Source: Dokdonella immobilis (lineage in GTDB: Bacteria > Pseudomonadota > Gammaproteobacteria > Xanthomonadales > Rhodanobacteraceae). From it: a stretch of 41,861 bases of DNA. The notes under the pieces are model-generated. The model was not told the DNA's origin and made no database searches. It saw nothing but the letters and a program-made list of their open reading frames with translations. The DNA is taken from positions 1 through 41,861 of the forward strand of contig NZ_FOVF01000037.1 of assembly GCF_900115085.1 (NCBI RefSeq). Direction: 5' to 3'. Each line of letters begins with the position of its first letter. The stretch's first letter is position 1. A program made the position numbers and the translations under genes. Shown here piece by piece: positions 1 to 4,744 of this stretch.

Positions 1-247
1 AGAACACCTTGACGTGCTGGGCCGGAATCAGCAGTACGCGGTGCCCCAACGCCTGCAAACGGCGGCCCCAATAATTCGAACTGCCACAAGCCTCCATGGC
101 AATCGAGGTGATCGGGAGCTGGTGGATGAACTGGGTGAATTTGCCTGCCGAAAACCGGCGGTTCGATTTCACTTGGCCTTCGGCATCCAAGACGCAGACC
201 TGATAGCAATTCTTTGCAAGATCGATGGCAACGAGACTAGGATTCAT
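1..247 (-). CDS. IS110-family transposase, N-terminal part (cut by window edge)
   Basis: Reading from the ATG at 247-245 gives 82 residues before the left edge. The start MNPSLVAIDLAKNCYQVCVL is the classic IS110 RuvC-like N-terminus, with the first acidic catalytic residue at D9. The second appears at E52 in the IAMEACGSSNYW block, followed by RLQALGHRVLLIPAQHVK, also typical of the family. IS110 enzymes are DEDD transposases that move a circular intermediate without normal terminal inverted repeats; IS110-group members have been shown to use a bridge RNA transcribed from a non-coding end of the element. A strong Shine-Dalgarno GAGGAGG (262-256) precedes the ATG but lies in the arm of a hairpin. 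The C-terminal catalytic serine domain is outside the window, so intactness cannot be judged. Confidence 0.9.
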   Translation of the reverse strand, partial: MNPSLVAIDLAKNCYQVCVLDAEGQVKSNRRFSAGKFTQFIHQLPITSIAMEACGSSNYWGRRLQALGHRVLLIPAQHVKVF

Positions 248-250
248 GAC

Positions 251-328
251 GGACGCCTCCTCATCTGTGACTGGTCGGTAGTACTTCCAGTCTGGCGCAA
301 CGTGACGCCGTAGGTGAAGGAGGCGTCC
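251..328 (-). ncRNA. Structured leader of the IS110 element; candidate bridge RNA or RBS-sequestering hairpin
   Basis: A perfect 10-bp inverted repeat, GGACGCCTCC at 251-260 and GGAGGCGTCC at 319-328, encloses two smaller hairpins: 269-274 paired with 287-292 (GACTGG/CCAGTC, 12-nt loop) and 294-297 paired with 306-309 (GGCG/CGCC). On the minus strand this multibranched fold ends three bases before the transposase ATG and its 3' arm contains the ribosome binding site. Known IS110-group bridge RNAs lie upstream of the transposase and carry two guide loops. The position and two-loop layout fit, but the guide function is inference, and a simple translation-control hairpin is an equal alternative. 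Confidence 0.5.
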
Positions 329-347
329 ATCTCAACACCCACAAAGT

Positions 348-393
348 TGCCCGACAAAAATTTGCCCGACAAGCGTGCCCGACATGCCCGACA
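348..393. repeat. Four direct copies of TGCCCGACA
   Basis: The 9-mer TGCCCGACA occurs at 348-356, 363-371, 376-384 and 385-393, at centre spacings of 15, 13 and 9 bases. The cluster begins about 20 bases outside the IS110 leader hairpin. It may mark the element end, its target, or protein binding sites; none of these can be decided from this copy alone. Confidence 0.7.
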
Positions 394-964
394 ACCGGGA
401 CACCCATAATTCCGTCCGGCTGCACTCCCCGGCCATGAAGCCTCGCTGACGGGGATATACGACAGCTCAGCCAGTGATCGACCGGCCAAGAATGTCGCTA
501 TTGCGAACCTTTCAAATGAGCATGATGGGGGCTGGGGGGGCTGGCTGACCTTCTTCGGAAATTGGTCTGCCCCGGGCGACCCGATCCTGCGTGAGAAATG
601 CGCGCAAGTGGTCAGGTCGTTTAGAGGTCGCATCAGCCGCTGCGCGCTTCCGATGCCCTTGAGCCAGCCCTGCCCCATCGCCACGACTTTCACGATCAAG
701 GCCAGGGCGGAGCCGCCCGCTCGCCGATAGCTTGTCTCGTTGACCTTTCAGCTCAGCTCTCTCACCGCTGAGCTGCTCTTCTGGACGTCCCGCTTCGCCT
801 CTCGGTGGAATCCGTCCTGGAAAAGGCGATCGGCAGATTACCCACGATGGGCGCGAAGCCTGACAAATGGCACACCCGGAATTCGGCACCGCGACAACAA
901 CAGCGGATTGGGGTCCTGGATCTCGAATCTATGGCCAATCCACGACTTGAGCCGGCTTCTTCTG
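394..964. other. Gap without a recognised gene beside the IS110 element
   Basis: This stretch lies between the IS110 leader and the 3' end of the beta-helix gene. Open frames exist on the minus strand (for example 512-889), but their translations are rich in Arg, Pro and Ser, resemble no family I know, and overlap one another in different frames. A minus-strand segment around 580-700 (reading MGQGWLKGIGSAQRLMRPL) looks slightly more protein-like and could be a remnant of a decayed gene. The motif ACAACCGGGACACCCATAAT at 391-410 belongs to a short dispersed repeat that recurs near 6230. Confidence 0.5.
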
Positions 965-2896
965 CTACTCGAAACTGTCGGCGAAAATCACGTCAACCAG
1001 TGTGGGAGCGGGTTGATAGAGGTGACCCAGCGCCGGACGGCGCGGATCGGTGGCCGGCAATCCAATCGTCGGTCCGGATCCGGTCAGTGCCGTTGTTGCG
1101 GTGACGACGCTGCCGGACTGTGCCGTATCCATGCCGTGCGTATCGCGCCATGCGGACCAGCCCATGTTCATCGGGCCTCCACCGCATTCGGTATCGCGCA
1201 TGGCGCGCGAACTCGTCGTCTCGATCAGGTTGGTGCCGATGTCCAGTTGCGTGTCGAACGCGGCCGGCACGCTGCCGAGACAGGAATGCCACGCATACGG
1301 AGCCTCGCTTCCGCTGCTGACGATGTTGTGGCTGAAGCGGCTTCCAAAGCTGGTCGGGTTGAACACCCCCCAGCTGAAGGTGAGCCCGGCGCCGACGAGC
1401 GTGTTGTGGTGGACATCATGGTTGCGCATATAGCAGGTTTCCTGGAAGCACTGCACTCCGAGGCGCACGCCCGCATTGATCAGGAGGTTGTGATGGATAT
1501 GGACATCGACCGAATTGTATTGCGCCGATACTGCGATACCGCTCGAGGTCGCGTTCGCCGTCGAAAAGGCAATGTAGTTTTCGCGATAGGTGTTCCCCTG
1601 CGAATTGTCCTTGTCATGGATGCCGCCCGAGGTCGCGCCCAAGCGGATCTGGTTGTTCTCGATCAGCGAATCGCCGGCATCGAACAAGGTAAATGCATAG
1701 GCGCCCGAGCTCAGCATCTGGAACGGGCCAAAATCGGAATCCTGCACGATCAGGGCATGGCGCGAGTTGTTTCCCGTATCACCTCGACCATGTACGAAGG
1801 CGGGATTCTCGCTCGGTGCCGATCCTTCACGGCCCTCGACGAAACGCAGATGGCGCAGAACCAGGCCCGGTGTGCTCGGATCGCTGAAGATGCCGTATTG
1901 CTGGACATGACGGATATCGAGACCTTCGAGGCGCGCCCCAGGCAACTGGTCGATGCGGACCGTGATCGAACCCGCGTAGTCCAGATCGATCTCCGGCACT
2001 TCGTCCGGATAGGCGAGGATCGTCTTCGCATGCGTATCGCCGATGATGAAGCCGCCGGTCAGGTAGCTTCCGCGGCGCAACATGATCGCCTGGACGGGGC
2101 TGGTCCGCGGCAAGGCGTAGCCGAGGGTGCGGTACGGCTGGGCGAGACTGCCCCGGCCTGCGCTATCGATCCCATCCTCTGCGACAAAGACAAATGGGGC
2201 GGTCGCCACGTCGATGGCGATGCTGTGCGTCAGCACCTGCTGGGGTGACGCGCTGTCGCGGATCTCGACCTCGATTGCGACCGAGGTCTCTGTTGCAGGA
2301 GTGAACCGCAGTGTGCCATGGCGGAAATCGATCGACACGCTCGAGGGAGGCATCGGTGTCCCCCCCATGGTCACCGCGATGATCCGGAACTCATACGGGA
2401 AGGTGCCACCGACGACGCCGAGCCTCGATTCATACGGCAGGCCGGGATAGGCCATGCCACGCACGGCGGACTCGCCACGCAGCACGCGCAGCGGACCACC
2501 CGGGAGCGTTTCCGGAACGACAACCGACGCACCGGGAATGCTGAGACAACGGATGAACACCGGGGAAGAATCGACCGGTACCGTGGCCGGTGCGAGTTCC
2601 GAAACCGCGCAGACCTGACCCGGTGGTTGGGCGACAACGTCGATGCCAAGAGCCGCCCCCGGCAGCGCCGGCGTGGCAAAGTCAAATTCGTCATTCAAGT
2701 TTGCGGTGAGCAGCTCACCGGCCCGATCCAGTTGCACTTCGGAACCCAGCGCAAGTCCCTCGACGCGCACTACGACCGGTATGGATCCCTGGCGGCCGGT
2801 GGCTCTAACGGTTTCGGCATGAATGGAGTTTGAAACAAGGAACAAGACAAGAAGCAGGACCCGCGATGCGAGCTCGCGTTGGCGTTGCAGCGACAT
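965..2896 (-). CDS. Secreted right-handed parallel beta-helix protein with C-terminal DSFE tag
   Basis: From the ATG at 2896 the product has 643 residues and starts with a good signal peptide (MSLQRQRELASRVLLLVLFL then SNSIHA). An upstream in-frame GTG at 2923 would add nine residues; the ATG is preferred because AAGG sits about nine bases upstream. The N-terminal third looks like Ig-like or cadherin-type beta domains. The middle carries the DG.DS.GRGSLAQPYRTL element that opens many pectate-lyase-like beta-helices, followed by repeated N/H-rich turns (IHHNLLINAG, VHHNTLVGAG, RFSHNIVSSG) of the NosD/PbH1 kind. No catalytic set is recognisable, so a substrate cannot be named; polysaccharide binding or cleavage is a guess. 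The last residues, VDVIFADSFE, match a C-terminal tag seen on exported Xanthomonadales proteins. Confidence 0.85.
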   Translation of the reverse strand: MSLQRQRELASRVLLLVLFLVSNSIHAETVRATGRQGSIPVVVRVEGLALGSEVQLDRAGELLTANLNDEFDFATPALPGAALGIDVVAQPPGQVCAVSELAPATVPVDSSPVFIRCLSIPGASVVVPETLPGGPLRVLRGESAVRGMAYPGLPYESRLGVVGGTFPYEFRIIAVTMGGTPMPPSSVSIDFRHGTLRFTPATETSVAIEVEIRDSASPQQVLTHSIAIDVATAPFVFVAEDGIDSAGRGSLAQPYRTLGYALPRTSPVQAIMLRRGSYLTGGFIIGDTHAKTILAYPDEVPEIDLDYAGSITVRIDQLPGARLEGLDIRHVQQYGIFSDPSTPGLVLRHLRFVEGREGSAPSENPAFVHGRGDTGNNSRHALIVQDSDFGPFQMLSSGAYAFTLFDAGDSLIENNQIRLGATSGGIHDKDNSQGNTYRENYIAFSTANATSSGIAVSAQYNSVDVHIHHNLLINAGVRLGVQCFQETCYMRNHDVHHNTLVGAGLTFSWGVFNPTSFGSRFSHNIVSSGSEAPYAWHSCLGSVPAAFDTQLDIGTNLIETTSSRAMRDTECGGGPMNMGWSAWRDTHGMDTAQSGSVVTATTALTGSGPTIGLPATDPRRPALGHLYQPAPTLVDVIFADSFE

Positions 2897-4226: not shown

Positions 4227-4744
4227 CAGCGTCCCAATGTTGTATCAGCGGGGTGGTCGATTTTGTCACGCTGGGCCGCAATTCAAAAACCGCGAGCCGC
4301 AAGGGATTGGCATGACCCACAATCCGCCGCCCATCGCCACCGGGAATTTCAGGCGCTGCGCATCACGGCAGGACCTGCAGCCGAAATTTCGGGACACCCG
4401 CTCTCTCTGCTGTGTCGCGCCGCGTGAATCATCAACTCCCTGCAACTGGATGGGCGCGCTCGGCTCTCGTCGCTGAAGAAGGCCGGAGCACGCCGGCTAC
4501 GGGCACCACGGTCCAACGAGGTAGCCTGAAGCAATCGGCCTGCCCGTGACGCAGGATCCGCTTGGCATTCCGGATGTCCCGATCAGTGCCGCCTTCACCT
4601 CGCCACTCTCGTAGCGACCGGCGTTGCGCCACGTGGACGGGCCATCCATGTCATTGATTCTCCTATGTGTAGGTCATTCGCCTTATGGCCCGGGCGCGGC
4701 GGCGCGAGGACAGTTCGAGCACCATCACTGCCGAGGATTCGCTC
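4227..4744. other. Divergent intergenic region, no gene recognised
   Basis: The region separates the minus-strand hydrolase from the plus-strand cytochrome b gene, so it should hold two outward promoters, but no convincing -35/-10 pair stands out. Short frames here (for example the minus-strand one at 4349-4534) read like Arg/Ser-rich shadow peptide. The phrase CGGGACACCCGC near 4393-4404 resembles the dispersed GGGACACCCAT motif at 398-406, but only over about ten bases. Confidence 0.45.

What the first reader, a model, noticed from the sequence alone, without database searches (positions are those of the whole stretch)
248..328. Folded leader before the IS110 transposase: candidate bridge RNA and translation switch
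A perfect 10-bp stem encloses two hairpins and ends three bases from the transposase ATG, with the GGAGG ribosome site inside its 3' arm. IS110-group elements encode a bridge RNA upstream of the transposase with two guide loops; this structure has the right place and layout. If so, the loops (275-286 and 298-305 on the plus strand) would be expected to match target and donor DNA. At 78 bases it is shorter than the best known bridge RNA, so a longer RNA reaching past 328 is possible.
Basis: partly seen in the sequence, partly recalled or inferred. Interest (0 to 1): 0.7.

Follow-up and report, generated by a model that had tools for sequence, protein, structure and literature searches.

The report
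Self-masking leader of a jumping gene
The folded RNA in front of this transposase gene is not the guide ("bridge") RNA, which appears to lie at the other end of the element, but a widely shared structure in which the element's own end repeat pairs with and hides the ribosome-binding site, probably keeping transposase production low.

Summary
On the minus strand a 10-bp stem (251-260/319-328, 14 bp when extended) encloses two hairpins and contains the transposase's GGAGG (z -6.5). The bridge-RNA reading fails. The element is IS1111-like: left end about 90 nt, right end 252 nt, found on other contigs of the same genome. Target-matching segments lie in the right end, not in the leader, here and across 88 relatives. 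The "translation switch" half survives and widens. The stem's 5' arm is the element's subterminal inverted repeat (sTIR-L); its 3' arm is a third inverted copy over the ribosome site. The pairing covaries (matches of 8 nt or more in 51 of 93 own against 11 of 930 foreign pairings). A model of it gave 129 matches in 59 of 299 genomes; 25 of 26 testable fetched loci had an IS110-family transposase beside it. Predicted circle-junction transcripts would start at the stem. Likely role: a translation-limiting leader. It is not universal (no match in IS4321/IS5075), C-A mismatches outnumber G-U, and nothing is tested experimentally.

The parts
1..247 (-). transposase gene, first 82 codons (ATG at 247-245); the rest lies beyond the contig end
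   Evidence: open ORF; Pfam DEDD_Tnp_IS110 E 1.6e-4, 21.9 bits, below its cut-off of 29 for this fragment; aligns with 14 relatives' transposases
248..261 (-). P1 3' arm: third inverted copy of the sTIR, containing the ribosome site AGGAGG (261-256)
318..331 (-). P1 5' arm, overlapping sTIR-L
319..330 (-). sTIR-L (ATGGACGCCTCC); its partner sTIR-R (GGAGGCGTCCAT) is in three other contigs of the same genome
294..309 (-). P2 hairpin (pairs 305-309/294-298), conserved in sequence and covarying in relatives
269..292 (-). P3 hairpin (pairs 287-292/269-274); the matching segment folds more strongly than shuffled in relatives
331..337 (-). 7-bp left terminal extension TGTTGAG, boundary assigned by the IS1111 rule; 337-334 (TGTT) is the left-end part of the predicted circle-junction -10 box TA|TGTT
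   Evidence: rule from PMC11187229 (passage)
326..328 (-). predicted start region of the circle-junction transcript (first bases of P1)
   Evidence: inference from the -10 position
338..341 (-). left half of the target (TGGG), outside the element by the same rule
   Evidence: shared by the copies

Best explanation
The feature is the 5' leader of the transposase mRNA of an IS1111-group element. It folds into a three-way junction: P1 (sTIR-L paired with a third, inverted sTIR-like copy that overlaps the ribosome site and reaches close to the start codon), P2 (conserved GGC..GCC hairpin) and P3. Shown here by computation: the P1 and P2 base pairs are kept through double changes in many relatives, the 3' arm sits on the ribosome site, and the target-matching segments are in the right end. 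Inferred: when the element circularises, the joined ends form a promoter (-35 in the right end, -10 across the junction) whose transcript starts at about the first base of P1, so the mRNA begins with P1 and hides its own ribosome site; transposase translation is thereby kept low, both from the circle and from read-through. What opens it (ribosome competition, transposase or right-end RNA) is unknown.
For: Pair counts on 58 leaders: P1 92.7% of cells paired, 5 of 7 pairs with double changes; both helices together 75 double-change cells against 18.3 +/- 3.3 in shuffles. In 93 complete elements not chosen on P2: own sTIR-L/pre-start duplex -20.8 versus -14.5 kcal/mol with foreign partners, stronger than the foreign mean in 78 of 93 and within the best 5% of foreign pairings in 45 of 93; uninterrupted match of 8 nt or more in 51 of 93 own versus 11 of 930 foreign. 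Of the 63 elements with a copy of 7 nt or more, 57 have it ending -9 to +2 of the start codon. Predicted unpaired probability of the ribosome site 0.22 versus 0.41 with shuffled upstream sequence and 0.43 without the 5' arm; window 0.00 versus 0.28 and 0.36. Best sigma70-like site at the joined ends has its -10 at -2 in 60 of 93, versus 21 of 1860 shuffles and 10 of 93 with the genomic left flank. P2 closes with a U-G pair in 53 of 58, which pairs only in the sense RNA. Precedent: weakening the 5'-UTR structure of ISPpu9, of the IS110/IS492 family, raised a transposase fusion 26-fold (PMC8450116, passages).
Against: In P1, C-A mismatches (16, plus one A-C) outnumber G-U wobbles (7) among 397 cells, not what selection for RNA pairing alone predicts. 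42 of 93 elements have no uninterrupted match of 8 nt; for 27 of 93 more than a fifth of foreign pairings are as strong as their own, among them L017, L018, L020 and L023 of Colwellia and Psychromonas. Only 24 of 93 have predicted ribosome-site accessibility below 0.1 and only 27 of 93 fall at or below 5% of their own shuffles. IS4321 and IS5075 gave no match to the model and ISSba8 a weak one. RNAalifold on its own found P2 but not P1. All structure is predicted.
Confidence: 0.7

Rival explanations
1. The leader is the element's bridge (seek) RNA, with its two hairpin loops reading target and donor DNA.
For: Position upstream of a DEDD transposase and two hairpins; this is where IS110-group elements carry it (PMC11208160, section 12). 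A minority of IS1111-family elements have an upstream or a second long non-coding region (PMC11187229, section 6).
Against: IS1111 layout with a 252-nt right end; target-matching segments found in the right end; the leader's longest match to the target is 4 nt and its two loops match target or donor by at most 4 nt; across 88 elements the leader shows almost no excess match to its own target (4.9 and 5.0 own versus 4.8 foreign) while the right end does (7.4 versus 5.6 for the top-strand complement, 37 of 88 ahead by 2 or more); P2 is nearly the same in elements with different targets.
Confidence: 0.03
2. The third repeat copy acts at DNA level, as an extra binding site for the transposase-guide RNA complex or as a cruciform, and its overlap with the ribosome site is incidental.
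For: The 5' arm is a DNA recombination repeat; C-A mismatches outnumber G-U; the strand also folds as DNA, z -4.9.
Against: sTIR-L and sTIR-R agree almost perfectly (5 of 837 cells not Watson-Crick) while the third copy is looser (36 of 397), so it is not held to the same DNA standard; it is pinned to the start codon; P2 and P3 are folded too; P2 carries a conserved U-G pair.
Confidence: 0.17
3. The stem mainly protects the 5' end of the circle transcript from decay rather than controlling translation.
For: The predicted start lies at the first bases of P1.
Against: Does not explain why the 3' arm lies at the ribosome site in 57 of the 63 elements with a copy of 7 nt or more when any stem would do.
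Confidence: 0.08

Closest known systems
IS1111-group elements (IS1111, ISEc11, ISKpn4, ISPa11) with seekRNA/bridge RNA in the right end
   Same: sTIRs, short left end, long right end, predicted junction promoter, top-strand match 5' of bottom-strand match; junctions compatible with 7-bp left and 3-bp right extensions
   Different: The parts read here (PMC11187229: sections 6-9 and passages; PMC11208160: section 12 and passages) describe no folded leader over the ribosome site at the left end; IS4321/IS5075, also of this group, gave no match
ISPpu9 of Pseudomonas putida (IS110/IS492 family)
   Different: 244-nt UTR, other group, proposed to be opened by an antisense RNA; no sTIR involved in what I read
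IS10, IS50 and IS200 transposase mRNAs
   Same: Low transposase synthesis through RNA-level control (recalled; a discussion passage of PMC8450116 names Hfq or sRNA control for them)
   Different: Other families and structures; in IS10/IS50 the occlusion acts on read-through transcripts (recalled), whereas here the circle transcript would carry it as well

Membership tests
IS1111 group | Subterminal inverted repeats of about 11-13 bp | tested here: met
   ATGGACGCCTCC / GGAGGCGTCCAT, 12 bp, in the same genome
IS1111 group | Terminal extensions of 7 bp left and 3 bp right | tested here: inconclusive
   Junctions of 3 left-end and 3 right-end contigs of this genome fit TGTTGAG and ATA, but shared sequence runs on into TGGG and TGTCCCG, and TGT stands both at the start of the left end and of the right flank, so the exact boundary was assigned by the rule, not measured
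IS1111 group | Short left end, long right end | tested here: met
   about 90 nt (boundary as assigned) versus 252 nt
IS1111 group | DEDD transposase with IS1111-type C-terminus | tested here: inconclusive
   Only 82 codons in the window; Pfam 21.9 bits against a cut-off of 29; the middle of the gene was not found in the assembly
IS1111 group | Promoter formed at the circle junction | tested here: met
   In silico only: TTGACC, 17 nt, TATGTT across the joined ends
Bridge RNA in the left leader | Loops complementary to target and donor | tested here: not met
   At most 4 nt; almost no excess over foreign targets in 88 elements
Bridge/seekRNA in the right end | Two segments matching both target strands, top-strand match first | tested here: met
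   CCGGGACA then GTGGGTGTT; 117 and 4 of 2000 shuffles reach these lengths, so the first alone is weak
Bridge/seekRNA in the right end | RNA bound to the transposase and needed for transposition | not testable with these tools
   needs RNA sequencing and transposition assays
Ribosome-site-occluding mRNA leader | Ribosome site inside a conserved, covarying stem | tested here: met
Ribosome-site-occluding mRNA leader | Disrupting the stem raises translation, restoring it lowers it | not testable with these tools
   needs reporter fusions
Known Rfam families | Match to a curated model | tested here: not met
   No match in the window at gathering cut-offs; nothing at the leader at relaxed E in window 1-700 or in 10 other loci, 9 of which hold a leader region

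The most novel reading that the evidence does not exclude
The repeat is a three-partner RNA switch. In the transposase mRNA sTIR-L can pair either with the third copy (ribosome site hidden) or, with a stronger predicted duplex in 87 of 93 elements, with sTIR-R at the far end of the same transcript or in right-end RNA. A transcript that includes the whole element and its guide RNA would then release the ribosome site, so transposase is made efficiently only when guide RNA and an intact right end are present. The stronger L-R pairing follows from the repeats being DNA repeats anyway, so this is a possibility, not a result.
Probability: 0.1. Interest if true: 0.8.

Novelty: new variant of a known kind. 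Interest (0 to 1): 0.48.

Why it matters
IS1111/IS110 recombinases are being developed as RNA-guided DNA rearrangement tools. A conserved leader that uses the element's own end repeat to mask the transposase ribosome site would mean that end sequence, promoter and translation control are tied together, could explain low natural expression, and warns that folded sequence upstream of the gene is not always the guide RNA. It comes with a covariance model and a simple reporter test.

Tried and rejected
Leader bridge RNA: rejected. Coupled upstream reading frame: in the window the sTIR-L ATG opens a 28-codon frame whose TGA overlaps the transposase ATG, but in 93 relatives that frame is open through to the transposase start in 42, against 45 and 43 for the other two frames, so it is not a conserved feature. 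Known Rfam family: none at the leader. "Only read-through transcripts are masked", as recalled for IS10/IS50: dropped, because the predicted circle transcript also starts with P1. RNAalifold on A3 found P2 only; P1 was then counted as a structure named by me.

Choices and dropped rows: of 74 candidate leaders (72 diverse ones, the window, L015), 58 went into A3 and 16 without a clear P2 were left out by eye before counting. The 93-element tests do not use that choice; 4 of 97 unique leaders fell out for lack of an anchor match, one search used 88 of 93 (short flanks) and the P3 test used 64 of 93. The relatives are related to each other, so counts are not independent events. The uninterrupted target string occurs in the window but no more often than chance (8 against 5.0 with one mismatch allowed).

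Literature: eight searches of an open-licence PMC subset; no leader of this kind was seen in the listings or in the passages and sections I opened. Prosseda 2006 (ISEc11 Pjunc) and Partridge and Hall 2003 (IS4321/IS5075) are not held, and Tetu and Holmes 2008 was not looked up, so an earlier description cannot be excluded.

Full report
What was checked first. The leader at 248-328 reads on the minus strand. The 10-bp stem, the two enclosed hairpins and the ribosome site in the 3' arm are there as described; the fold extends the stem to 14 bp (318-331 with 248-261), with hairpins 294-309 (P2) and 269-292 (P3). Against 200 dinucleotide shuffles the z-score is -6.5. No Rfam family matches the leader.

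Where the element ends. The window starts inside the transposase gene, apparently because copies of the element collapsed in the assembly. Two other contigs of the same genome carry the left end at 100% identity as rounded by the search (337 and 320 aligned bases), and another genome of the genus one at 84%. Comparing flanks, the copies share sequence out to a target half TGGG; by the IS1111 rule of a 7-bp extension (PMC11187229, passage) the left end is placed at window 337, TGTTGAG then ATGGACGCCTCC. A pattern search for the inverted repeat in the own genome gave seven places: the three left ends, one place (C23) without the right-end sequence, and three right ends, C40, C42 and C72. The three right ends show the same sequence after the transposase stop: 252 nt ending in GGAGGCGTCCAT-ATA, then the flank TGTCCCG in 3 of 3. 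Because TGT begins both the left end and the right flank, the boundary is uncertain by up to three bases, but the joined-end sequence is the same either way.

What kind of element. A 12-bp sTIR pair, a left end of about 90 nt and a right end of 252 nt are the IS1111 layout described in PMC11187229 (sections 6-9 and passages seen) and PMC11208160 (section 12 and passages seen). Of 124 relatives with a complete transposase and at least 100 nt after it, 110 had an inverted left/right match scoring 9 or more and 103 were kept as sTIR-bearing elements. In this group the guide RNA is usually in the right end, with exceptions (PMC11187229, section 6).

Where the guides are. In this element the right end contains CCGGGACA, the complement of the right target half, and downstream GTGGGTGTT, the left target half plus the element's first bases, in the order reported for ISEc11 (PMC11187229, section 9). 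117 and 4 of 2000 shuffles reach matches of these lengths, so the first alone is weak. Over 88 relatives with both flanks, the longest match of the right end to the complement of its own target averaged 7.4 nt against 5.6 for foreign targets, ahead by 2 or more in 37 of 88; for the identical strand 6.7 against 5.6 (17 of 88). For the leader the values were 4.9 and 5.0 against 4.8 (4 and 5 of 88). The bridge-RNA reading of the leader is therefore rejected.

What the leader is. Relatives were gathered from genomes, plasmids and viral contigs: 179 unique upstream regions, 103 complete elements, 97 unique leaders, 93 with an anchored sTIR-L. In many, the region just before the start codon is a third inverted copy of the element's own sTIR. 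The copy follows the sTIR as it changes: GGACTCC/GGAGTCC, GGATGGCTCC/GGAGCCATCC, GGAACGGCCC/GGGGCCGTTCC and so on. On 58 aligned leaders (58 of 74; 16 without a clear P2 left out) P1 has 92.7% of cells paired and 5 of 7 pairs with double changes; P2 has 97.2% and 2 of 5; 75 double-change cells in all against 18.3 +/- 3.3 in shuffles; sliding the partner by 1 to 3 columns drops pairing from 94.6% to 23-50%. Without any selection on P2, the sTIR-L to pre-start duplex of the 93 elements averages -20.8 kcal/mol against -14.5 for foreign partners (78 of 93 better than the foreign mean), and 51 of 93 have an uninterrupted match of 8 nt or more against 11 of 930 foreign pairings. Among the 63 with a copy of 7 nt or more anywhere from the left end to 150 nt into the gene, 57 have it ending between -9 and +2 of the start codon. 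The segment after P2 folds at -6.8 kcal/mol against -3.1 shuffled (64 of 93 tested; first paired base 1-2 nt after P2 in 38 of 64), so a third helix P3 is likely.

How widespread. A covariance model from the 58 leaders matched 141 of 180 sources searched (83 of the 122 not used to build it, some of them close to ones that were), counting forward matches at E up to 0.05; the five other matches were the reverse strand of the same places. It also matched three other places in the same genome next to IS110-family transposases, not in the training set; two of the three scored identically and may be one element in two copies. A search of 299 genomes of the phylum with the model alone gave 129 matches in 59 genomes (my sum of the table; at most 14 candidates were scored per genome, so a lower bound). 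Of 29 loci fetched from these, 25 had an IS110-family transposase after the match: 24 within about 20 nt and one (L229) about 58 nt on. Of the four others, three (L226, L232, L233) have 4 to 37 nt left on their contig and one (L228) has room but no hit, so 25 of 26 testable. Several of these loci are the same places as earlier ones. On the alignment of those matches, which is fitted to the model and includes one reverse-strand row, pairing is 94.9% with 60 double-change cells against 19.4. The leader is not universal: IS4321 and IS5075 gave no match and ISSba8 a weak one, and 39 of the 180 sources gave none, some of them without a left end on the contig.

How it probably works. Joining right end and left end in silico, the best sigma70-like site has its -10 box starting two bases before the junction in 60 of 93 elements, against 21 of 1860 shuffles and 10 of 93 when the genomic left flank replaces the right end. 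In this element it is TTGACC, 17 nt, TATGTT. The expected transcript start, about seven bases after the -10, is at the first bases of P1. The mRNA would then begin with P1 and have its ribosome site paired. Predicted unpaired probability of the ribosome site is 0.22 on average, 0.43 without the 5' arm and 0.41 with shuffled upstream sequence (both p < 1e-11, paired Wilcoxon, relatedness ignored); in the window 0.00 against 0.36 and 0.28. Mutational support for such a mechanism exists for another DEDD element, ISPpu9, where weakening the 5'-UTR structure raised a fusion 26-fold (PMC8450116, passages). The inference that P1 limits transposase translation here is not tested by experiment.

Results against this reading. 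C-A mismatches in P1 (16, plus one A-C) exceed G-U pairs (7). In L017, L018, L020 and L023 (Colwellia, Psychromonas) the ungapped duplex is weak, and for L017 and L018 the ribosome site is no less accessible than in shuffles. Only 24 of 93 have accessibility below 0.1 and 27 of 93 fall at or below 5% of their shuffles. A DNA-level role of the third copy remains possible, though it is held less strictly than sTIR-R (36 of 397 cells not Watson-Crick, against 5 of 837).

Comparison and novelty. It works like other transposase-limiting mRNA leaders; the differences are that one arm is the recombination repeat itself and that the structure is shared across many IS1111 elements of the phylum. I saw no description in eight searches of an open-licence library, but key older papers are not held, so I rate it a new variant of a known kind, with moderate interest.

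Noticed in passing
window 343-393: Short direct repeats of AAAGTTGCCCGACAA (343-372) and TGCCCGACA (376-393) just outside the left end of the element, next to the insertion site.
   Followed up: partly
window 396-405 and 4390-4399, minus strand: Uninterrupted target-like GGGTGTCCCG, one copy close to the insertion; with one mismatch allowed the count in the window (8) is not above chance (mean 5.0).
   Followed up: partly
G000:C24:92234-92333, C50:10695-10794, C45:853-934 (loci L011, L012, L010): Three other places in the same genome with an IS110-family transposase carry the same leader; the first two score identically.
   Followed up: partly
L057:2454-2499 (-) and 2672-2717 (+): Two copies of Acido-Lenti-1 RNA (RF01687) in opposite orientation, upstream of that element's left end.
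   Followed up: no
window 244-330, minus strand: 28-codon frame from the sTIR-L ATG whose TGA overlaps the transposase ATG; not conserved in relatives.
   Followed up: yes
L246 and L248, about 235-297: IS4321 and IS5075 have a shorter left end with no match to the leader model; by eye only CTCC/GGAG and, in L248, GATGG/CCATC could pair.
   Followed up: partly
window 1 (contig end): The contig breaks inside the transposase; three left ends and three right ends of the element lie on different contigs of this assembly.
   Followed up: partly
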